Source: Smittium culicis (Eukaryota; Kickxellomycota; Harpellomycetes; Harpellales; Legeriomycetaceae). From it: 18,500 nt of DNA. Location: positions 1-18,500 of the forward strand of contig LSSN01000117.1 of the NCBI GenBank assembly GCA_001970855.1. Reading direction: 5' to 3'. The notes below the pieces were generated by a model, which worked only from the letters and a program-made list of their open reading frames with translations, ran no database searches and was not told where the DNA came from. This document shows positions 1 through 18,470 of this stretch, piece after piece. The position numbers and the translations under genes are program-made. The stretch's first letter is position 1. Each line of letters opens with the position of its first letter.

Positions 1-382
1 AATAGTTAATAGTTAATAGTTAATAGTTAATAGTTAATAGTTAATAGTTAATAGTTAATAGTTAATAGTTAATAGTTAATAGTTAATAGTTAATAGTTAA
101 TAGTTAATAGTTAATAGTTAATAGTTAATAGTTAATAGTTAATAGTTAATAGTTAATAGTTAATAGTTAATAGTTAATAGTTAATAGTTAATAGTTAATA
201 GTTAATAGTTAATAGTTAATAGTTAATAGTTAATAGTTAATAGTTAATAGTTAATAGTTAATAGTTAATAGTTAATAGTTAATAGTTAATAGTTAATAGT
301 TAATAGTTAATAGTTAATAGTTAATAGTTAATAGTTAATAGTTAATAGTTAATAGTTAATAGTTAATAGTTAATAGTTAATA
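1..382. repeat. Perfect 7-bp tandem array (AATAGTT)n
   Basis: The heptamer AATAGTT repeats without a single error from the window edge to 382, about 54.6 copies, and probably continues to the left. It stops abruptly when the expected G is replaced by T at 383. The perfect homogeneity implies recent expansion or active maintenance by slippage or unequal exchange. It resembles a telomere repeat in unit length only. Neither strand has runs of G, and the single G per unit is on the strand running inward from the left edge, the reverse of a left telomere. Stop codons occur in every frame on both strands, so it is not coding. Confidence 0.97.
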
Positions 383-1125: not shown

Positions 1126-2644
1126 TCATGTATTTATTTCTAATATAATTTGCCAATTCATTCCTATTTAATTTTTCTTTATTTAATGAATTTATTATGA
1201 TATGAATTTATTAAAGAAAATTATACAAGATAAATATAGCTGATAAAAATATATTTAATAGGTGGATTCTGAATTATACTGATAATTTTAAATATAATTT
1301 TTTATTTTTATGAGTGAAAATTAAAAGAAGAATAAAATAAACTTCTCATCAATAAAAAAACCAATAAAAATAAATTTTAATATTTATGTAGTGAGTTTAG
1401 TAATTCACTTAATTTATTTCAATATAATTTCTTTTATCTCCACTCCAATTATCGCCAAATTGGCTTTTGAGTCTAAATTTATATATTAATTTTCAAAATT
1501 TTGTAATTATTCAAATATTAGCTCAATGCTAAATTTATCGTGAAAAAAGAAAAAAAATCAACTCTAAGCTTACTTCAACCGTATTTTGGTATTTTTAATT
1601 AATCTATAGAAGCCATGCTTATAGTTATAACACCTTTTTTATTTTCTAAATCCCTTACTAATTCCTAATAATAAACTATATTTTAAAATTTAGTTACTAA
1701 AACACATATTATTGTGTATTTATATCTTTCATTGAATATTAGCTTCCGTTAAAAAGAAATTTTAATTAAATCCACTTTTAATAGACGCTTTTTTTCAAAA
1801 ATAAGTATAATTATTATACAAATATTTGATTTAAAAACGCTATTAAATCCTAATAGTTACTAAAACTCTGTCATGTTAGTTTTTTTATGATTTTGATGCA
1901 TTTAAATTGAAAAACTAAGCCCGTTCTAATCTCTTCTCCCTTAATTCGTATATGTAAAAGTCTGATAAATAATAGAAGGAAATTAATACCAAACTAAAAC
2001 CAATTAAAATAATTATTTTAAACTTTATTATCGATATTAGACCTAATTTTCCAGTTTTACAAATAAAAATATTTTCCCCTCAATATTTGAGCTTTTAAGA
2101 TAGTTTTTTTAATCTGGTAATAAATAATTCATCCCCTTTCAAATCGCATATCGAAAATAAATCATGAATAATATATCAATTTTTGTGAAAATATCAATCA
2201 ATTTCAGTAAAAATGCAAAATTAATATGTAAATACGCCGCAGAGTAGCTTCTTCAGTTATTAAATTGAATTTATATATAAGATGAAGAGGAAGCATAAAA
2301 TGAAAGAAAAAGAAACGAAATTAGTATAAAGGGAAAATTAATCTAATCTAAAAAATTTCAATTCATTTTATTTTTTAAATTATACTTATATGAATGGATT
2401 CGTATTAAGTGTTACCATCTTTATTAATAAACGATCAAAGATTACAAGTAAAGTAAAAATAGAAATACCAATAAAGGTTTTTTTTTAAATTTTTTAAATT
2501 AGATGTTATGATACATATTCTGTATTCTGTATATCATTGTCATATTTTCTTTTGAAAAGGAAATCTACGAGCGATATTAGATTTTCAGAATTAATTATTC
2601 TAAAATGATTTCAGAAACTGCAGTCACAGAAAAATTTATCGCTA
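1126..2644. other. A+T-rich spacer, no gene seen
   Basis: About 1.5 kb of very A+T-rich sequence with short homopolymer runs and frequent stops in all frames. I see no sustained open frame, RNA gene or clear repeat. The terminal repeat of the retrotransposon that follows could lie at its right end, but no matching partner was found by eye. Confidence 0.6.
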
Positions 2645-3440
2645 ATGTTTTTTAAAGCAATAAGCCACCTTAGTTCTAAGGTTGAAAATCTGTATGTATT
2701 TATAGCTTTGGATCCTCAACCAGATGAGGGTCAATGAATTTCTTTTCCTGGCCTAAAAATAGCGCATAATGTATCACATAACTTGGAAGCCCGATTAAAT
2801 CGATGACAGAAGACTTCTACAGAACCATCCTTAAAATAGAAGAGAAGAAGGAGTTGATATATTGATTCCCCAAGAGTAGAAATGTCTGATAATACCCTCA
2901 ACATGATTGACTAAGCTGCTCCTGAAACTGTAAAGAAGGTATATTCACTATTTTATGCCATTCAAAAAGCACTCGCAATATTCCATTGTTTATAAACTAC
3001 TTTATTCAAATTATTCTACATTAAAACACAGTATTGACAGTAGAAGACTCAGTGATGGATGTTTAAACATGCAAGAAGCATTATAGAAATTTAGAAATCG
3101 ATCGCAACCCAAGCCAGGTTAGATAATTTACATAGCGAAATGGATTTCATATGTTAGCCCAAAAAAGAAGTAGAATCCGAAGTTAAGCCGTTAATTGTTA
3201 GTGAAAAATTTGAAACCAAGTTAGCAGCGTCAAAAATAGTAAAACGAGCTAGATTCAGATACCCCTATAGCGGGCGACACTAGGTTCAAGGAAAAAAGAG
3301 TCCTATCAGCTTAATACCAGAAACGGTGAAAAAAACTGATGCTTCAGAACCAAGATTGATTCCTGCTTCCTCCCGTGGAAAGTTTCAAAACTTATCCAGG
3401 GTTCGAGGTCGAGGAAGCCATTAACAGCTTCAGATTCTCT
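2645..3440 (+). pseudogene. Gag-like ORF remnant of the DIRS-type element
   Basis: From an ATG at 2645 one frame persists, with stops, to about 3420. Readable pieces include VENLYVFIALDPQPDEG (about 2684-2734), APETVKKVYSLFYAIQKALA (about 2922-2981), a helical-looking stretch SIATQARLDNLHSEMDF (about 3098-3148) and a basic Arg/Gly patch RVRGRG near 3398-3415. Part of the protein near 2808-2870 reads better in the adjacent frame, so at least two frameshifts are present. The assignment as Gag rests on position directly upstream of RT, charged helical composition and the RG-rich end, a common nucleic-acid-binding feature. No conserved Gag domain or zinc knuckle was recognised, so the family label is an inference. 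Confidence 0.6.
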
Positions 3441-3444
3441 CTTA

Positions 3445-4210
3445 TACGGGTGGCGACTCTTAGTGCTCAAGATAGCACAGTAAAATCTAAAGTAAAATAT
3501 TTTAGCCCGTAAAATCGTAGAGATTTGGTCACAGATACCATTCAGAAATTCACAAAGGCACCATAAGGTGATTTTTATGGGACTGCAATCATTAAAAATG
3601 CATTATTAATGCAGAAAGAGAAAATCTAGCCACAAATCACGCAGAGCGTTTACTTGAAAAGTGCATCTTTGCTTGCGAAAAAGGCTATATAGGAAGCGGG
3701 AAAACAGAAATAAGTGTAACACAGCAATATTTTCTGCATTTCCAAGAAGACAGGATAACTTCAACAAGTTTTGACTTTATGGATCTGAACCAGAGCTTAG
3801 AGGAGAGAAATTTCTTGGCTAATTCTCTTCAATTTATCTGCTTATTGAAACTCCGAATGTATTACAAGATTTTAATGGATTTTAATGAAGTTTTTATACA
3901 TATAATATTAAATAATACACGCAGAAAATACCTTAATTTTTTCAGGAATGCCCGGAATTATCAATTCAGAGTTCTAAAATTTGGACTGTTGTTGAGTACT
4001 CACAAGTTCAAAAAGATTATAAAATCCATATTAAGATAGGCGAGAATATTGAAGATCAAGGCATCTGATCGCTAGAACAGCTCCTTAATAACAGAGGAGT
4101 CAAGAAAAGCATTTTAGAAGAGCACAAAGATGCTGAAATTGAAGCTAACCTAGCTGAGGTATCCTATTAATACTAAAAAAACGAAATTAATCCCTTCTGA
4201 AATAATAATA
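3445..4210 (+). pseudogene. Reverse transcriptase remnant (DIRS-type)
   Basis: A long open stretch in one frame (3596-4039, 147 codons) continues in the same frame past a TAG at 4037 to about 4200. It shows the RT blocks in order: QQYFLHFQEDRI (block leading into the fingers), FDFMDLNQSLEERNF, MDFNEVFIHI in place of the usual D-L-K-D-A-F-x-H-x catalytic block, RRKYLNF, YQFRVLKFGLLLST in place of the substrate-binding P-F-G-L block, and downstream KTKLIPSE. The region where the Y-x-D-D box should lie (about 4064-4084) contains a TAG stop with Asn and Ser where the paired aspartates should be, so the copy is catalytically dead. A short upstream piece near 3445-3470 in another frame resembles the G-G-R-L block that precedes RT in DIRS elements. 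Confidence 0.85.
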
Positions 4211-4355
4211 CATATAGAAGTGGCTAAGATACTTGGTATATGACATTGAAAGTTCTGGTATCGAACATCTGAGATCTGCGTCGATGAGCGGCAAAAATGA
4301 TTAATTCAGGGAAAGAATGCCTCAGGATCCATTTAAGCTTAATAAGGAAATTTAA

Positions 4356-4830
4356 AGACATTTTTGTTGCTCTTCTTCTAAGGCGGTTAATTCTGCGACC
4401 TCTATTGGAATTGAAAAACCGACCCCAATAAAAAAACTAATCTTGAAAATCAACAATTTTCCTAACCTAGCTATTAACACAGAATCATCTGTTCTGGGGG
4501 GAAATTTTGAAAAAATGGAACAGTCAGTAATTCTTTCTGAAAACACCGGAAAAAGAATTTTTTTACGGACGAGAGCGATTCGGATTGAGGAATTATCATT
4601 GAGAACAAAAGTTATTTGTGTTCATACAGGAGTTCGGAAGATATATTAAACTCTAACTGAAAAAAGACTATTAGCATGTTTCCCCCCCCCCATTTATGCT
4701 GATTGAGATAGTATGAAATCGTGCATTAAATTATTCATAAATACCTTCAATCTGTGTTATGTGAGAAAGGTAGGTGGATTACGCAAAGTTCTAAAACATA
4801 TTAGAGCGCATTTGGAACCATTTCGTATAG
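4356..4830 (+). pseudogene. RNase H remnant of the DIRS-type element
   Basis: A 98-codon open stretch (4356-4649) carries NLAINTESSVLGG at about 4464-4502, matching the beta strand of retroelement RNase H where the normal motif is x-x-T-D-A-S-x-x-G-x-G. The first catalytic Asp position is a Glu (codon 4482-4484). ENTGKRIF and IRIEELSLRTK follow as the next strand and helix. In the same frame, after a run of ten C residues, IYAD at 4692-4703 is a candidate for the second acidic position, followed by a GG and basic residues near 4770. Beyond about 4830 the domain dissolves into A+T-rich sequence. Its place directly after RT supports the call. The minus-strand reading frame across the same bases is only a shadow. 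Confidence 0.72.
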
Positions 4831-5021
4831 AAAAAAATAAAAAATAAAAAATACAAGTCTACTATGTCCTTTAACTTTAAACTACGCATTTTCTTCTGAC
4901 AAGTTAACCGTGAAATCACATTATTCTATCTATAATTAGCTTATTTATGATTTAAAGAAGAGTTATTATATACATAATTTGGACCTCTTATAATTATCAT
5001 AAAAATCTTAAAGTGTAGATT

Positions 5022-5147
5022 TATTTCAGCTGGTACACAGGTCTACAAGCTGTAGATCAGAATACGCTGAGACATGACTGGTACAAGTCAAAGAACCCAT
5101 ACTGCTACCCTCCCCTCCATGGAATCTTAAACCGAAAGTATTTTTAA
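5022..5147 (+). pseudogene. Post-RNase H segment of the DIRS-type pol
   Basis: Forty-one codons without a stop, ending at TAA 5145-5147, read YFSWYTGLQAVDQ, then RHDWYKSKNPYCYPPLHGI. The pattern S-W, then A-V-D, then D-W, then Y-x-x-P-P-x-x-x-I is the conserved stretch I associate, from memory, with the region just after RNase H in DIRS-group pol proteins. It sits between the RNase H and YR remnants, where expected. The 370-bp gap before it (4650-5021) is A+T-rich and largely unreadable as protein, so deletion, insertion or heavy decay lies there. Confidence 0.65.
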
Positions 5148-5340
5148 TGGCACTCCACGAGCGATTAAAGATGACTATGACCAAAAGAATGGAAGTTCAG
5201 GATATTTTTTTATGAAATAAAATCCCTATCAATTTCTCGTTCATAAATACAGGATACCTCCGAAGTGGTACCAGAACTGAAAAGCGGTAAAAAAATTCTA
5301 AAAAAGTACAAAAAATGTTTTCTCATGGATTGTAGGATCA

Positions 5341-6814
5341 GTGGAGCTCCGTAAAGTCGAAGGCGTCTCTAATAGCGCAATAACTCTTAAAAAAAATAGC
5401 ATAAGATCAGTATAAAAAAATCGATTTAATACCCATTACTGAAAAATTTTATCGATTTGCATAAGATTTGATACGAAAGTTAAGTTATATCGGCTGTGAA
5501 TGTGGTTAGATACTTTGTAGATATATATATCAAGTCAAATATTAGCTTCAGTACGATAAAGATCAACAATCATATATTTTTAAATTTATCATAATCAAAA
5601 TAAATCAGAAAATATGGCTGTATGCGCAAAATTTTAACAGAAATAGACGAAAAACGCATAAAAAACTCTGTTGACCAAAAAAAGATATTTATCTAGTTAT
5701 GTCTTACTTTAAATAAGTATAAAACAATAATATATTGGAAATTAAACTTCTAAATAGCATGGAATTTTTTTTGGCGGTATCTGGATTTATTCAGGCTAGT
5801 GACACAAAAAATTTGGTTTCTTCTTTCGGAGTTTACGGTTTTGATCTTGATATATTGAGAAAAAATAAACGCAAAATAAAAATAATTATGCTATTGTGTA
5901 ATTGGGTAAAAATATAAAATTTAGAATTTCGTTTACGAAAAGAAAGTAAGGAATAATATTTTATTTAATGGTTGCGGTTTAGTTATTTTGGGCTTGTTGA
6001 AATAATATTGAAAATCTATTTCAGGGATTTTTTTTAAAGTTTTTAAGTTTTAAATTTTTATATTTTGCGAGAAAAAAATAGTCAGATTTTTCGAGGAAAA
6101 AATCAAATTTTGTCCAAAAGGTAGCTTTTATAGTATTTTGTATAACTATATCTGTATTTTTTTTAAACTAATATTTCCAATGGTATTTTGGCTTAATTTA
6201 TGCTACTGATATTTGAAAAAATAAAAGTAAGCTTCCACCAATTAATACATAGTCTGGTTAATTTTAATTATTATTATTATATATTACTACTTTCTAGCCT
6301 TTATTATATACCTTAGACACAGTGTACTAGAACAATAGTCCTACCATTGAAAATACACATCGCATAGATGACTTTCAAACAAATGTAATTGACATCACGT
6401 ATAAATAAGTGATTGTGTTATCTAAAGCAAAACGTAAAGACCGACCAATAATTAAGCCGTGTGAAATTAGCTCGCATCACGACGTGCTTTTAAGTCTTGT
6501 TGAAGCTTGTAAGGCAATTAAGGAAAGATGAAAGTGGAACTGTGCCCTAAATTCATATCAATAAAAAATCTATCCAGTTAAATATATTATTCAGATACAC
6601 AGAGGAAAATACTAACTCTCTAACTGTAAATATTATGACAACAAAAATTCATAATATTTCTAATTTGATTAAAAGAAAATAAAGTGAACCTATCCCAAAG
6701 GCTAGTTATATTTCCGAATAGATAGCTGCAAACGCATTTGTTCCAGAATACTAAGTTTTAGCTCAGATCTTTTGGTCAAAATATGAGATATTAGTCAGCT
6801 ATTATTGCATCTAA
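5341..6814 (+). pseudogene. Tyrosine recombinase remnant, interrupted
   Basis: The YR replaces integrase in DIRS-group elements. The N-terminal SAM-like DNA-binding domain is seen as EGVSNSAITLKKNSIRS (5359-5409) and, in another frame, NVVRYFVDIYIKSNISFSTI (5499-5558). The catalytic domain begins near 5684 with YLVMSYFK, then FFLAVSGFIQASD (5765-5803), in which Gln (5792-5794) occupies the position of the first catalytic Arg. After a 550-bp interruption it resumes at about 6355 with HRIDDFQTNVID, LSKAKRKDRPIIKP and SHHDVLLSLVEACKA, then, in a new frame from 6557, LFRYTEEN, EPIPKASYISE, FVPEY, VLAQIFWSKYEI and SYYCI. The second Arg box reads P-K-A-S. The nucleophile Tyr region (6800-6805) is retained. 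At least four frame changes and several stops make it a pseudogene. Confidence 0.85.
5807..6354. mobile_element. Probable insertion within the recombinase relic
   Basis: Recombinase-like sequence stops right after the S-D-T codons (ending 5806) and resumes with T-H-R-I-D-D at 6355. These are positions that are adjacent in related proteins. The intervening ~550 bp is much more A+T-rich and unlike recombinase, although a chance open frame runs on to 5917. A 5-bp ACACA lies at both junctions (5802-5806 and 6355-6359) and could be a target duplication. I found no convincing terminal inverted repeats, so the element type is unknown. Replacement by drift is an alternative. Confidence 0.4.
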
Positions 6815-8531
6815 AGTAAAAAAAAAAATCTAACAGTAGATAATCATATTTTGATTTAGCCTTGTCGAATATTAGCTAATATTATACTAATAATGGGTTC
6901 ATTAATTCTCGAGCTAGCAAATCCATTATAAGTTATTCCTTTGAGAAAAGATGATTAGAAATTTATAGTACGCACATTTAGCATTTAAATATAAATAATG
7001 TATATAAATCTTATCTATTTCTAATTTTTGATATTTTATTTAATATAGATGATTAGACTTAATTTGAATTCACCATTGGTATAAAGATAGTTAGTTTTTG
7101 TCAAGACTAATTAAATTTAGATCTTTTTATTTTATTTAATTTAATTTTATTTAAAATAAAACATAACATGGATCTTTTGTAAAGTAAATGATTAATTTTA
7201 TAAAGTTATAAAGTAATTAAAAAACAAAGATAAAATTTTCATTTTCCCATAAAATAAAAATTCAATTAAAGTATGATATTTTATAAATATATATGTTTAA
7301 TCATCAAGGTTACTCATAATAAACCAGATTCAAAAAATAATTTCTTCATTTTTTTCAAGGTATAAAGAAAATTTAATTAGTTGTATAAATATCCTTATAA
7401 ATTTTGAATCTATATGACTATAGTTATAATTCTAAACATTTGTTTAGCTATCTGAATATAGGTTTTTATTTTATAAAATAGCTAAGATATTACATAACTA
7501 GTTATTTTTCAAAAGAAATAGTAAAAGTTTGTTATATTTTAAATTAGTTATATTTGATTTAGGATATCAAAAAATTTTGACAAGATTCAATTCAGTTGAA
7601 TTTTATTGTTATCAAATTACTTTTGTTGTAAATATAATTGAAATTTTTTATAATTTTTATGATTTTAATTCAATAAACAAAAATAAATTCCAAACCCAAG
7701 ATGTCTAAATATGAAGGTCATTCAGAAACTATAGAAGTTTTATTTCTTTTTATAAGTATATATTATCATCTGAAAAATTTTTCTCACAATATTATCACTT
7801 TGTAATTATAAATATATTTAGGTTCTTTTCCGTTAACGATTAGATTTAGAAAGTATTAATATCAATTTTTTTAATAAAAAAGTTAGTTATTCTGATTTAA
7901 TTTCATAGTTGGTATATACGAAAATTCCCATATATTTTTATGAATATTTATACCTTTACATTATTTTGACACTAAAATAAGACTTTATGGTTTTATAAGA
8001 ATCCAGAATGTATATTTTTTAGATTTATTTTATGGTTTAGCATTTCATTAATATGAATATAGGTTAATAAAATTTAATACAAATTAGTTAAGATTATATT
8101 AATTGATCTATTGCTAAATGTAAGCCCATAATAAATACCCAAAGGCTTAATTTCAATAGTGTTATTTTATTTTATAATGTAAATTCTTTTTATTTTACTT
8201 ATCTGATAATATTTAACAATCGAGTTTTTTTTTTGTATATAATGATTTTATCTGACCTTTTATTCCTGTTCTGAAAACCCTTATATTCTCTAATTTAAGC
8301 ATAGTTTGATTGTTAGTATTATTCATATATTACTTGATCTGATTAAGCATAAATTTATATTTTAACACTTTCACGTACGGTAGACTGGTTTTGATCTACA
8401 ATGTAATACCAACAGCTTTCAATTAAAATTTTATAATTCCAAGTTTCTAAGAATCTTTGGTATATTGTAGCTATTCAACAAATGGTAAATTTCGTTAAAA
8501 TATTAAAAGAATCAATACATAGATTTTTTTA
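6815..8531. other. A+T-rich spacer, no gene seen
   Basis: Extremely A+T-rich, with stops in all frames and simple A/T tracts such as 7125-7165. The first ~150 bp (to about 6980) is slightly less A+T-rich and may still be the 3' untranslated or terminal-repeat part of the DIRS-type element. No partner repeat was found on the left side of that element. Confidence 0.55.
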
Positions 8532-9009: not shown

Positions 9010-10981
9010 CGAATTTTTTCAAGGATATCAAGATACTTGATTTATTTAAATTTAGTGAATTATGAATATAATTTAATAAGAAAAAGCTTTTTAATTAAAT
9101 TATTTTATAGTTTTATAGTGTAAGCCTATTATCACAGAATCTTTTAAACTTTTATAGGTATTATATATAATGATGTATTTAAAGCTTTCTGTATTTTATT
9201 CAATGTAAATTAATTTATTATACATTATTCTCCTAAAAATAAATACTAAAATACAATTAATGGATTGTCTATCCAAATTCCATGAAGTTTTAACACATTT
9301 TCTGCTTTAAATTTAGTTTTTTACAAAATATCTATTCAATGGATCTTGTATAAATTCGAGTTTTAATTATGGGAATTTATATAAATATTTTTTATAATTT
9401 TTTGACTAAAATTGAAATCTTTTTACTGAATAAAGCTTCATACAGTAAAATTATTTAAGGAAAATTTATAGCTCATTATATGCATCAAATATTCCTATTC
9501 AACCGAATCAAATTAATAAAATCTCATCACAAGCTAAAAAATATATATTATGATTCTTGATTAATAAAATTTAGTTATAGATAAATTACATGATAAATAA
9601 ATAAGTAATGAAATAAATAGTCAACTGAATAATATGATGGAATTTACTTTCAGATTATAGTCTAATTTTTATTGTAAACGATATAATTATATTTTATCTG
9701 AAAAAGTTTATAACGCGTGTTTTTATTACGGCATATGATAAATTATATTTATTAAAATCATTAACCTATGCTGGTTAATCTATGCAAAATAATTGTGCAA
9801 TTTTTTTTATTAAAATTTATTAGAAATATTTTGTTAAATATCTGTTAATCAAGCTTTTATAATGAAAAATCTTTCAAACTGTATATTTTTAAATGCTAAA
9901 ATTATGTATAAAGTAATCACAAATAAATAAATTAAGTTAGCGCAGTAAAAGTTAAAAGTTTTAAACTACTGTATGTTTGATAATTATAAAAATTAAAGCT
10001 TATTATAATTAATAAAAACATTATACTAACATGTGTCGTAGTAAAAACCTACCAGCCAATGATATGAAATTATTATTGATCTGAAATAGATAGTATTCAA
10101 TGTTTTTTTTTCTTCTAACAAAGATCCAAGATTCTTATTTTACTAAGAGTTTTTTTTTCAACATCAAAATACTAACTTGATTGGATCTTTACCATTTTTA
10201 TATAAAACTTATTTTTCTTTATTCAAACTATATTATTTTATTTATACTTATCACTATCATCATTTCTCTTTATTAAACATCATTTCTTACTAAAAGTAAT
10301 AAATGTATATTATCACAATAAAGGTATAAAAACCCCTTCAAGAAATGATTTTTTATATCATTATCGAAAATTTTATACTGGAAAAAAAATTTAATAAAGT
10401 TTAAATTTAAAACTAAATAAAACTGATATTAAAAAAAATCTGCTTATTGAATAGTGAAACACTTATAGTGCCGTACCAGATTATAAACGGCGAAACATGT
10501 TGCTCCTCGTTTTATTTTATTTAACAGCTTAATTATATTGAAAAAAGATCAGATACAGTGAATTAAAGCAAAGTAGATATAAAAAATATTATAGCTGTAT
10601 CAAGGCATAAAAAAATAATATCTTTACACATATAAATATCTTTTAAAATCTATCTAATGCGTACCAAATGATAATTAAAACAAGTCTACCATTAATAGAT
10701 CTCATCTCATCTCATATTAATTTAAGTAGGCTGGGTGACTGAGTTAGATCATTAATGGAGCTAAGCTCGTTTTATCAATATAAAATTCGTTGAAAATATT
10801 TGATTTTAGTAAGAACCTACACCTAACAAGATTATTAAAAAATGGGCTCATATTCAAACGAGAGAATGATCGACTAGGTACTTTTGAAATAAGCTGCTAT
10901 ACTTCTAAAATCCGTAGTGCTACCTAAATTTGGATTTTATTAGTAGATTTTCTAAAAATGCTCCGAAAGAATCTGCTTCTC
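9010..10981. other. A+T-rich spacer with one short inverted repeat
   Basis: No sustained ORF. The last ~350 bp (from about 10630) are less A+T-rich and contain an imperfect inverted repeat, CCATTAATAGATCT at 10689-10702 against AGATCATTAATGG at 10746-10758, and a TCTCA micro-repeat at 10700-10715. Nothing else could be assigned. Confidence 0.55.
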
Positions 10982-11212
10982 TCATTTCGAGATGATCCTC
11001 CTCTGAAATCTCTGTACTCTTAGCTGCACATCGTTGTCTTCAGTATTCCCAATTAAGGATAATGTATATCTAAGAGGAAAATTAGTATAGACGCTTCTAA
11101 AAGTACATTTAATAAGTAATAATATAACGTCAAAGAGTTTCTCTTGGAAAGTGCTATTCCTCGTTATAAAAAAAATAAACACAAACAGAATGTATTTCTT
11201 AAACATATTCAA
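10982..11212 (-). pseudogene. Small possible coding relic
   Basis: A 76-codon minus-strand frame from 11212, with a less A+T-biased second half (LSLIGNTEDNDVQLRVQRFQ). Downstream of its stop, a neighbouring frame reads on for about 30 codons without a stop as READSFGAFLENLLIKSKFR, which suggests one frameshifted ORF of about 110 codons rather than two chance frames. The N-terminal part is Phe/Ile-rich and may be only A+T-rich noise. No family recognised. It may belong to another decayed transposon or be chance. Confidence 0.25.
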
Positions 11213-15128: not shown

Positions 15129-15478
15129 TTAAAATGATTACAAAGCACTGTGTGTAAATATACTAGTTTTATAACTCAATTTACGATTAGCTTAATTCTT
15201 TTAAAGTAAATGTATTTATTTAATATATACCAAAATACTTGCTATAAGTTTATAATATTTTTCATCTGTTTAAATTTGAACCATCTTATAACAAAGTTTA
15301 ATGAATAAATAAGTGTTTTTAAAGCCTTTTATTTTTCTAAAGGGAGTTGTATATAAATAGCACAAAATAGCCAAGGTTATCAACTAAAATATGTTATTAC
15401 ATTTGTGATATATAGCTAAAATTTCAAATTTCAAAATATAATTGATAAAATATAATATAATATAGTTCACATATTAAA
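15129..15478. other. Intergenic region between divergent ORFs
   Basis: About 350 bp of A+T-rich DNA between the 101-codon minus-strand open stretch and the start of the 345-aa gene. Apart from the TATA-like string at 15352, and an in-frame TAA at 15458-15460 that closes the frame upstream of the ATG, nothing is recognisable. It could hold both promoters. Confidence 0.45.
15352..15360 (+). promoter_or_regulatory. Candidate TATA box for the 345-aa gene
   Basis: TATAAATAG lies about 120 bp upstream of the ATG at 15479 and directly follows a rare G+C-containing patch (AGGGAG). It matches the eukaryotic TATA consensus, but such strings arise easily in this composition, so position is the main support. 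Confidence 0.25.
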
Positions 15479-16516
15479 ATGACAACTCTTTATAACTCAA
15501 GAAGCAAGCCTAGAAAAAGTAATGACGAAAAGCTGGTTTTTATTAACTATAAATGTCCAAATGAGTATTCAGTCGATTCACATATCAAATCAATATGTGG
15601 TAGATCAAATACAAATTTAAATTTTGGAGAAGTAAAACCAGGAACTGCTGAAAGAATTATTGAACTTCAAGAATCTCATTCTATAGATTCAAAGTACGAA
15701 AAAGGCTTATATTTTTTCACTGATCCTATTTTAAGTGAGGAAGAATATAAATTTAACGAAAATAGGAATGTTTTTCATCAATACCATAAAGCTTTGCCGT
15801 TATCTAAATCTCCAGACAACCAAATATCATCAGAAAACTTGAATCTCGCTGATCATTTTAATAAACTTAGCCCAAAAATAAAAACTATAGAAAAAGAGCC
15901 GATATGCATTACAAGTAAAAAGAAGGAATTTGAAAACAATTTTTTTGGCTTAGATAAATATGACATTAAACTTGGGTCCAATAAAGTTTCAAACAATGAT
16001 AATAGTTTAAGTTATAGTGAAAATATAAGAAAAAATTTATACCAAGCTGGGATATGTAAAAATGATGACGATAATCATAAAAAATATTATACCAACACTT
16101 TAGAATTTTTAAAAACTAATCGAAACGCCTCTAGTTTAATTGAATGCATTTCTTCCATTAACCAAAATTGTGGTGAAAAAATAAAAACACAAAAAAATAA
16201 GTATAATTTTCTAAGAAAAGAAAGTACAAATGACCTTGAAATAGAATCGAATATATCTTTATTTAAAAATCTAAATGAATTTGAAAAAAAAGAACCTGAA
16301 TATGACTATGTTGATAGTAATTTAAATGGAGTTTCCGTGTATTCAAATCACTATGAATACACCAACAGCACAAGCTTAGCTGATTTTGGGACTGTTATAA
16401 ATAACATAATAGAATCAAAAAATACTAAAGCTGTTGGCACTGAAAATAAAAGTAATCTGAAGCTCAAATTAAAAAAATCCTTTAGTAAAAATTCAATAGA
16501 ATATATAATTGATTAA
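15479..16516 (+). CDS. Hypothetical protein, 345 aa, no recognised family
   Basis: This is the only long intact ORF in the window, and its length is far beyond chance at this composition. The ATG is the first in-frame Met after a stop at 15458-15460 and has A at -3. The frame is uninterrupted to TAA at 16514-16516 with no sign of an intron. G+C is clearly higher than in the flanks. The product is hydrophilic and rich in Asn, Lys, Ser and Glu, with no signal peptide or membrane segment. The best-structured part is residues 20-100 (LVFINYKCPNEY, then FGEVKPGTAERIIELQE, then GLYFFTDPILSEEEY). Six Cys (26, 40, 143, 193, 223, 231) do not form an obvious zinc motif. Residues 100-290 look low-complexity or disordered. 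A basic C-terminus (about 324-337) could bind nucleic acid or act as a nuclear signal, but this is speculative. Function unknown. It could be a lineage-specific host gene or an effector-like orphan. Confidence 0.75.
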   Translation: MTTLYNSRSKPRKSNDEKLVFINYKCPNEYSVDSHIKSICGRSNTNLNFGEVKPGTAERIIELQESHSIDSKYEKGLYFFTDPILSEEEYKFNENRNVFHQYHKALPLSKSPDNQISSENLNLADHFNKLSPKIKTIEKEPICITSKKKEFENNFFGLDKYDIKLGSNKVSNNDNSLSYSENIRKNLYQAGICKNDDDNHKKYYTNTLEFLKTNRNASSLIECISSINQNCGEKIKTQKNKYNFLRKESTNDLEIESNISLFKNLNEFEKKEPEYDYVDSNLNGVSVYSNHYEYTNSTSLADFGTVINNIIESKNTKAVGTENKSNLKLKLKKSFSKNSIEYIID

Positions 16517-16550: not shown

Positions 16551-16640
16551 AAAGATAAAATAAATTTCTCCTAACTTATTTGTGTATGAATTTAATTGAA
16601 TCCAGTGTATATTTCTACTGAGTTAAAATATGTATTTTAA

Positions 16641-16761
16641 AGGATTTTGAAATCGAATTTCTAAAAGCTTCGATCAATTGTAGATATCGCCCATGCAATT
16701 TCTAAAAAAAATTTCGTGATGCGATGGAAAAAAAAAAATTTTTTTTTTGGATTACATAAGT
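16641..16761 (+). repeat. Left inverted arm of the foldback-like element
   Basis: About 120 bp matched by the right arm in reverse orientation. It includes a perfect A11T10 tract (16728-16748), itself a palindrome. The arm begins about 125 bp after the stop of the 345-aa gene. Confidence 0.75.
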
Positions 16762-16787
16762 GCAACCCAAAGTTGATTCTAAATGTA

Positions 16788-17313
16788 CAGTAAAACCTCT
16801 GAGATATCAACAGCTATTTTTGCCCCACTTTGGCCCAAATGTCCTCTCAGATAGCAATTTGAGATCTGAGAGGTTTTTTAATGATAAAAATAGCTAGCAA
16901 GGAACTAGCTACAAATTGAATAAAAAAAAAATCAAGAATTCTAAATATAATAATTTGATTTGTTTATTTTTTTATTAAAAAAAAAGCAAAACTTAATTCT
17001 TCAAGTACATATTTTGTTGCTATCTTAGAAATTGTATTTTGGCTCATTTTACAGCCACTTTACAACAGAACTGCGAATTGCCCTCTTAGAGTACAATTGA
17101 TAATAGGCCAAACTATTTACAATATAAATAGCCAATTGACAAATAAAATTTTCTAAAAGTTGCAAACTTAATTTAATTAGCCTATAAAATCGCTTTAATA
17201 AGAGTGGGGTATACTTCAAACAATAAAGCAATGTTTTTTCAATTTAAAATTCATAAAGTTGCTATCTTAGAGGTTTGCAATCTCAAGGTGTTGCCATCTT
17301 AGAGGTTTTACTG
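16788..17313. mobile_element. pogo/Tigger-like MITE nested in the foldback arm
   Basis: A 526-bp non-autonomous element. The left end is CAGTAAAACCTCTGAGAT, and the right end read on the minus strand is CAGTAAAACCTCTAAGAT. The terminal inverted repeats agree at about 22 of the first 25 positions. TA flanks both ends (16786-16787 and 17314-17315), the target duplication of the Tc1/mariner/pogo superfamily, and CAGTAAAACCTCT is a well-known pogo/Emigrant-type terminus. Extra copies of the A-C-C-T-C-T-n-A-G-A-T motif occur inside in both orientations (near 16841, 16866 and 17270). No transposase is encoded; the 60-codon minus-strand frame at 17049-17231 is not recognisable. It interrupts the left arm region of the foldback-like element, so it inserted later. 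Confidence 0.88.
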
Positions 17314-17342
17314 TATCAACCAAAATTATTCATTAGTTCAAT

Positions 17343-17426
17343 CAATTTTCTACAAGTCTCAAAGCTGATTCTAATTTACCAAAACAGTTTTCTATAAGTT
17401 CCGAAGTTGATTCTAATTGACTCGAG
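17343..17426 (+). repeat. Two 42-bp subterminal tandem units
   Basis: Units at 17343-17384 and 17385-17426 share TTTTCTAYAAGT, then AAGYTGATTCTAATT. A degenerate third begins at 17427, and a partial unit sits at about 16767-16785, before the MITE. An inverted copy lies at 18262-18303. Subterminal repeats of this kind are often transposase binding sites, but here that is inference. Confidence 0.65.
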
Positions 17427-17858
17427 TAGTTTTCTAATATATCCAAATATTGTTCAAACGCTCATAATTGACTAATAAAACAATTTTAACACCATATAAA
17501 TCCCTTTTCCATTTCTTTTATTAAATCCTTGAATTTTTTACTTTTCAGTTTTATATAATAAAATAAAATAATCATAATTTTTTTTTAATATATTTATAGA
17601 TATACTTAATTACTAAACGTGCACACAAAATCTAGCTTATACATCTTGCAACTGAAACGGTCATTGTAAATAACTTGAAAATATATTACAATTTCAAAAA
17701 TTTTAATATTTTGATAAAATGCTATTCAAATATTTAGCTAAATAAAGAGTTGTTATACCGCTTTAGATTTATCGTACTTTATTTTTTAATTTTATTTTAA
17801 TTCTGTAATAATAATATAGTAAATGTTAAATAAATATTTTTAAATGAGCACAAATTTT

Positions 17859-17881
17859 AAACTGTTAATTTTAAACAGTTT
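17859..17881. repeat. Short perfect inverted repeat
   Basis: AAACTGTT at 17859-17866 and AACAGTTT at 17874-17881 form a hairpin with a 7-base loop, in the interior of the foldback-like element. No function is assigned. Confidence 0.4.
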
Positions 17882-18331
17882 GTTTAGGTTCTAATAAAGT
17901 TATGGTAATAATTAAAAAATAAACGTTTTGAAAAAATATTACTAAGGTATAAGTAAAAAAAAACACAAATTGATTTTATAAAGAATTTAGTAAAATTTAT
18001 TTTTATTTAATTGAATCAATCTAATTAACTCTTTCATGGGCGGTATAATGTAATCGAGAATCAATATATAAGCAACTATTTTCTATAACAGAATTCTAAT
18101 TCTGTGAATCATTCATCTATTGGTTTATAGCAAAGTACCAGCGAATAATAATTTTCTTTTAAAATTATTGAATCAATAAATTCGCTTCATTAAAAAGCAT
18201 TGGAGGGGAAAGGGTTAAAGCAGATTTTTTAGCGTATCATTAACATACTAGAATATTTTTTGAGTCAATTAGAATCAACTTTGAAACTAGTAGAAAATCG
18301 ATTGATAAATTTATAATCGTTTTTTGGTTAT

Positions 18332-18453
18332 ACTTATGTAATCCAAAAAAAAAAAAAACTTTTTCCATCGAGACACGGAATTTTTTTTTTAGAAATTACA
18401 TGGGCGATATCTACAATTGATCGAAGCTTTTAGAAATTTGATTTCAAAACCCT
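18332..18453 (-). repeat. Right inverted arm of the foldback-like element
   Basis: The inverted copy of 16641-16761, with scattered substitutions and different homopolymer lengths, as expected for an old element. Confidence 0.75.
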
Positions 18454-18470
18454 ATATAACTTTATTTAAG

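What the first reader, a model, noticed from the sequence alone, without database searches (positions are those of the whole stretch)
2645..6814. Hidden relic of a DIRS/Ngaro-type retrotransposon
No long ORF marks this region, yet frame-by-frame reading recovers Gag-like, RT, RNase H, post-RNase H and tyrosine recombinase remnants in order over 4.2 kb. The RT block YQFRVLKFGL, the RNase H piece INTESSVLGG, and the YR pieces DRPIIKP and VLAQIFWSKYEI with a final SYY are specific. The absence of a recognisable methyltransferase and the gag-RT-RH-YR order point to a Ngaro-like layout. An annotation by ORF length alone would miss it.
Basis: partly seen in the sequence, partly recalled or inferred. 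Interest (0 to 1): 0.75.

Follow-up and report, generated by a model that had tools for sequence, protein, structure and literature searches.

The report
Decayed DIRS retrotransposon in a fungus
This stretch is an old, broken copy of a known kind of jumping gene (a DIRS retrotransposon) in the genome of a fungus that lives in insect guts; the find is real but ordinary.

Summary
Confirmed, with corrections. The window is a whole contig of a 56.3-Mb Smittium culicis genome. A decayed tyrosine-recombinase retrotransposon lies at about 2373-7123, longer than the reported 2645-6814. Translated matches to relatives run in order gag, RT, RNase H, methyltransferase, YR; nine matched pieces hold 39 stops in 865 codons. 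The reversed window gives no match. A stop-tolerant six-frame Pfam scan of the window finds nothing. The "Ngaro-like" reading is wrong: relatives carry a Dam methyltransferase after RNase H and the relic matches it at 5001-5351; the ends are inverted repeats (0 of 1000 shuffles as good); another copy shows DIRS1 internal complementary regions. INTESSVLGG is not RNase H. A nested 549-bp repeat, 5807-6355, splits the YR gene. A YR search lists 143 matching stretches elsewhere in the genome, so this is a fossil of an abundant family. Interest is low: DIRS elements in this fungal subphylum are published (PMC3783388, passages).

The parts
2373..2460 (+). left terminus with inverted terminal repeat (best-aligned core 2378-2450)
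   Evidence: inverse match to 7092-7016, 74% over 77 columns; local score 48, best of 1000 shuffles 38. Homology to relatives' left ends starts at 2366 (L027, L028), 2372 (L024), 2373 (L025), 2394 (L026); for L029 only at 2577. Exact first base not defined
2612..3421 (+). gag-like remnant, frames 1 and 2, with stops
   Evidence: tblastn: L025 gag frame 2906-3349, E 4.7e-15; S. culicis P0012 2612-3253 and 3098-3415, Furculomyces P0018 2794-3268, P0024 and P0029 to 3421
3773..4216 (+). reverse transcriptase remnant, frame 2 (contains YQFRVLKFGL 3959-3988)
   Evidence: P0002 and P0013 match 3773-4024 at 36.9%, E 1.0e-10 and 5.5e-11; both match RVT_1, P0002 above and P0013 below the cut-off; L042 frame matches 4031-4216
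4228..4563 (+). pol remnant between RT and RNase H, frame 1
   Evidence: 38.9-49.1% identity over 108-112 aa to frames of seven relatives, L031, L042, L043, L047, L052, L055, L057; score 132-137 against shuffle maxima of 42-58 for three relatives over 4354-4563
4562..4987 (+). RNase H remnant and start of the methyltransferase, frame 2 (FTDESDSD 4562-4585)
   Evidence: L025 pol frame residues 54-193, 27.6% identity; in that frame DNA_pol_viral_C is at residues 49-166 and Dam at 171-245
5001..5351 (+). Dam-type N6-adenine methyltransferase remnant, frame 3
   Evidence: 29-38% identity over about 107-197 aa to relatives' pol frames, best E 5.8e-15; overlaps their PF05869 stretch, e.g. L031 residues 295-409 against Dam at 268-364
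3862..5362 (+). traces of the YR reading frame overlapping pol (3862-4125 frame 1; 4356-4649 frame 3, weak; 4730-5362 frame 2)
   Evidence: P0004 E 7.9e-4; L025 second frame, chain E 2.3e-12; the 4356-4649 piece: 1 of 300 shuffles as good for L043 but 12, 50, 57 and 270 of 300 for four others
5415..5806 (+). YR remnant, N-terminal (core-binding) part
   Evidence: L037 residues 460-546 match 5415-5672 at 34.5%; L031 frame 5021-5803 at 24.6%; a residue invariant in 13 of 13 aligned YR sequences is replaced here
5807..6355 (.). unrelated 549-bp repeat nested inside the YR gene
   Evidence: 84-85% identical to copies on C339, C1368 and C369, with flanks that do not align
6358..6528 (+). YR catalytic part, first piece, frame 1 (DRPIIKP)
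   Evidence: 57.9% identical to L031, 56.1% to L037
6554..6805 (+). YR catalytic part, second piece, frame 2 (VLAQIFWSKYEI...SYY)
   Evidence: 50.0% identical to L031, 48.8% to L025; a second invariant residue is replaced, the Tyr of the YYR motif is kept
6851..6956 (+). internal complementary region remnant
   Evidence: aligns to the ICR of L025: score 69, best of 1000 shuffles 27; pairing to the relic's own right end is weak (26 of 1000 shuffles as good), to its left end absent (570 of 1000)
7016..7123 (+). right terminus: inverted terminal repeat plus outer extension
   Evidence: 7047-7122 aligns to the L025 right end: score 63, best of 1000 shuffles 30; 7016-7092 is the inverse of the left end. 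Last base estimated

Best explanation
It is an inactive, decayed copy of a DIRS1-like retrotransposon in Smittium culicis. Inferred from the family's known biology: such an element was transcribed, copied into a circle by its reverse transcriptase and RNase H with help of the internal complementary regions, and inserted by its tyrosine recombinase without a DDE integrase. After insertion this copy drifted: stops, frame changes, loss of two invariant recombinase residues, base composition moving towards the AT-rich host, and a later insertion of a 549-bp repeat into the YR gene. Shown here: gene order, methyltransferase remnant, inverted ends, decay, nesting. Inferred: the replication route and the relative age.
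Confidence: 0.95

Rival explanations
1. Ngaro-type element: gag-RT-RH-YR without methyltransferase, A-pol-B-A-B repeats.
For: Shares gag, RT, RNase H and YR; the methyltransferase piece is too decayed for Pfam in the window itself.
Against: Match at 5001-5351 overlaps the Dam stretch of relatives; inverted ends; no Ngaro in early-branching fungi according to PMC3783388 (passage).
Confidence: 0.02
2. PAT/TOC-type element: DIRS order, but with split direct repeats.
For: [quoted passage not shown]
Against: Ends of the relic and of L025 are inverted, and L025 has complementary regions next to the right end.
Confidence: 0.02
3. Ty3-type LTR retrotransposon with a DDE integrase.
For: RT and RNase H of DIRS are related to those of Ty3 (PMC3266345, passage).
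Against: No integrase (rve) family in the 17 relative frames scanned; no direct repeat of 25 nt or more reported in the window except the 7-mer array; the YR pieces.
Confidence: 0.005
4. Chance reading of frames in noncoding DNA.
For: Single short motifs are weak; INTESSVLGG lies outside the pol frame.
Against: Reversed window 0 matches; 50 shuffles at most 26.6 bits; 12 other places at 64-73% DNA identity.
Confidence: 0.005

Closest known systems
DIRS1-like retrotransposons (Dictyostelium DIRS1 as reference; PMC3266345, passages)
   Same: gag; pol with RT-RH-MT; YR frame overlapping pol; inverted terminal repeats; internal complementary regions next to the right end
   Different: this copy is decayed beyond profile detection and carries a nested repeat in the YR gene; in L025 the two complementary regions overlap by about 10 alignable bases, where the paper describes a 3-bp junction
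Fungal DIRS of Mucoromycotina and Kickxellomycotina (Coemansia reversa; PMC3783388, passages)
   Same: same subphylum of host, same domain set with Dam; long frame overlap reported for the five fungal elements annotated in PMC3266345
   Different: the word Smittium does not occur in PMC3783388; no tree was made here, so the sub-group is not placed
Ngaro
   Same: gag-RT-RH-YR order
   Different: Ngaro lacks the methyltransferase and has split direct repeats; both were tested here and not met

Membership tests
DIRS1-like retrotransposon | RT and RNase H in one pol frame | tested here: met
   relatives L037, L043, L047: RVT_1 and DNA_pol_viral_C/RT_RNaseH in one frame; relic matches RT 3773-4024 and RNase H from 4562
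DIRS1-like retrotransposon | N6-adenine methyltransferase (Dam) after RNase H | tested here: met
   PF05869 in 5 of 17 relative frames scanned (1 of 7, 4 of 10), 3 of the 5 above the curated cut-off; the relic match at 5001-5351 overlaps it
DIRS1-like retrotransposon | tyrosine recombinase instead of DDE integrase | tested here: met
   Cre-like core-binding fold in a relative; invariant R, R and Y in 13 of 13 sequences (that these are catalytic is recalled); no rve. Against: PF00589 has no hit in the genome
DIRS1-like retrotransposon | inverted terminal repeats | tested here: met
   2378-2450 against 7092-7016, 0 of 1000 shuffles as good; also L025, 0 of 300
DIRS1-like retrotransposon | internal complementary regions matching both ends | tested here: inconclusive
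   met in copy L025 for both ends, 0 of 300 shuffles each; in the relic only homologous to L025's region, own pairing 26 of 1000 (right) and 570 of 1000 (left)
DIRS1-like retrotransposon | long overlap of YR and pol frames | tested here: inconclusive
   met in relatives such as L037, L043 and L047 and C1946; only traces in the relic
DIRS1-like retrotransposon | insertion without target-site duplication (recalled) | not tested
   ends of the relic are not defined to the base
Ngaro | no methyltransferase | tested here: not met
   Dam in relatives and matched in the relic
Ngaro | split direct repeats (A-pol-B-A-B) | tested here: not met
   ends are inverted; no direct repeat of 25 nt or more reported in the window other than the 7-mer array
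Ty3 LTR retrotransposon | DDE integrase | tested here: not met
   no rve in 17 relative frames or 6 window frames

The most novel reading that the evidence does not exclude
The Smittium copies belong to a DIRS1-like lineage of their own, confined to Harpellales gut fungi, with a YR so diverged that the standard Phage_integrase profile finds no copy in the genome; such lineages would be under-counted wherever YR elements are annotated by that profile.
Probability: 0.3. Interest if true: 0.3.

Novelty: new member of a known kind. Interest (0 to 1): 0.15.

Why it matters
It matters mainly for annotation. The relic is invisible to ORF length and to Pfam but clear once compared with better-kept copies of its own genome. 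It corrects a Ngaro call to DIRS, which fits the published split (DIRS in early-branching fungi, Ngaro in Dikarya; PMC3783388, passages). It also suggests that PF00589 can miss the YRs of an abundant family.

Tried and rejected
Ngaro, PAT, Ty3 and chance were considered and rejected as above. Host as a microsporidian: my first guess from GC; the SSU rRNA search that would have tested it did not complete; RPA2 identity then pointed to Smittium culicis. RIP-like mutation: transitions do not dominate (ts/tv 0.65-0.81 against five copies). A fused gag-YR frame, suggested by database gene models such as P0004: in copy C1946 gag lies in a separate frame, so rejected for that copy; other copies were not checked. 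The AATAGTT array as telomere: only 2 of 2529 contigs hold five perfect copies in a row, so unlikely. First structure job: mean pLDDT 31, not used. PDB sequence searches: nothing. NCBIfam: 1 of 4 proteins (L043 pol) matched, with a phage N6-adenine methyltransferase model and distant RT and RNase H models, all below cut-off. The frame at 15482-16513 has no homologue at E<=0.001 among 2162 candidates. Papers: Smittium culicis + genome + transposable elements gave 0; Smittium + DIRS gave 1, where DIRS occurs only in a cited title. No paper was read whole; passages were seen in PMC3783388, PMC3266345 and PMC10386755. SSU and Rfam: the window itself has no Rfam match and no tRNA.

Full report
What and where. 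The window is the whole contig C102 (18,500 bases) of a 56.3-Mb, 2529-contig genome. An RNA polymerase I subunit 2 frame from the same genome is 100% identical over 1032 aa to a Smittium culicis protein; the next best is S. mucronatum at 75%. S. culicis is a fungus of Kickxellomycotina, Harpellales.

Observation. GC is about 0.35 at 2501-4000 against 0.17-0.27 outside the relic, and no stop-to-stop frame in the relic exceeds 147 aa. DNA search of 2500-5500 found 12 other places at 64-73% identity. tblastn of 36 open frames from 15 loci gave collinear matches across gag, RT, RNase H, methyltransferase and YR; the reversed window gave none. A protein search with one YR frame returned 35 proteins, all 35 named from Smittium or Furculomyces (only the 7994 best candidates were scored). 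Those of the 35 that match the window do so in the same order, and 50 shuffles with 71 queries reached at most 26.6 bits. Pfam on the window itself found nothing in 6 of 6 frames, and the relic is not among the listed matches of the genome-wide RVT_1, YR and Dam searches.

Class. Seventeen relative frames were scanned with Pfam. Dam (PF05869) appears in 5 of them, directly after an RNase H-like match, 3 above the curated cut-off; the relic's 5001-5351 match overlaps that stretch. Genome-wide, Dam has 58 matches among 101 candidates, at least 20 of them on contigs that also hold a YR match. The relic's ends are inverted repeats: 2378-2450 against 7092-7016, score 48, best of 1000 shuffles 38. 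Copy L025 shows the DIRS1 terminal plan: one complementary region inverse to its right end, another inverse to its left end, overlapping by about 10 bases; PMC3266345 (passages) describes two such regions overlapping on a 3-bp junction. In copy C1946 gag, pol and YR lie in three frames and the YR frame overlaps pol. PMC3783388 (passages) states that MT is present solely in DIRS and that Ngaro was not found in early-branching fungi. Hence DIRS1-like, not Ngaro.

Decay. Nine matched pieces hold 39 stops in 865 codons. GC is 0.324 (2373-5806) and 0.275 (6356-7123), against 0.43-0.47 in four better-kept copies, 0.30 in L022, and 0.21-0.23 in the flanks. Transitions do not dominate (ts/tv 0.65-0.81), so there is no sign of RIP. 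A 549-bp repeat at 5807-6355 splits the YR gene; three copies elsewhere are 84-85% identical, with flanks that do not align. Relatives' YR frames run without a break there. The repeat therefore came in after the DIRS element.

Motif corrections. YQFRVLKFGL, DRPIIKP, VLAQIFWSKYEI and SYY are right. INTESSVLGG (frame 3) is not RNase H: the pol frame there is frame 1 (score 132-137 against shuffle maxima 42-58 for three relatives), while frame 3 gives no pol signal (146, 30 and 174 of 300 shuffles as good). It may be the overlapping YR frame, but that is weak: 1, 12, 50, 57 and 270 of 300 shuffles as good for five relatives. The RNase H match begins with FTDESDSD at 4562.

Setting. The family is abundant: 143 matching YR stretches from 142 scored of 953 candidates, many with stops and some copies counted twice. 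The relic is one old member of it. DIRS in Kickxellomycotina is published (Coemansia reversa, PMC3783388); a search of the held library for Smittium culicis with genome and transposable elements gave no paper.

Noticed in passing
window 1-382: A perfect 7-base array (AATAGTT, 54.6 copies) forms the end of the contig; five perfect copies in a row occur on only one other contig, C595, so it does not look like a general telomere repeat.
   Followed up: partly
window 5807-6355: Unclassified dispersed 549-bp repeat nested in the YR gene; close copies on C339, C369 and C1368, further relatives at 68-82% on other contigs.
   Followed up: partly
window 10567-11107: Another old dispersed repeat, 67-75% identical to 39 other listed places; 40 of 158 candidates were scored.
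   Followed up: partly
window 16635-18459: Element with long inverted ends (77 bp at 94% plus inner arms) and a relative on C2016; inside it, about 16786-17316, lies a short repeat with 38 other listed places at 79-91% identity (40 of 633 candidates scored) and a 30-bp inverted end.
   Followed up: partly
window 15461-16516: The longest frame of the contig (351 aa, + strand); searched from 15482 to 16513, no homologue at E<=0.001 among 2162 candidates.
   Followed up: partly
L057 1-2148: In this copy one open frame of 716 aa matches the relic both in pol and methyltransferase and in the YR gene, unlike the separate overlapping frames of other copies.
   Followed up: no
genome G000: Many matches come in near-identical pairs on different contigs (e.g. 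C2336 and C1225, 98% identical over 1857 bases), as if haplotypes or duplicates were kept apart in the assembly.
   Followed up: no
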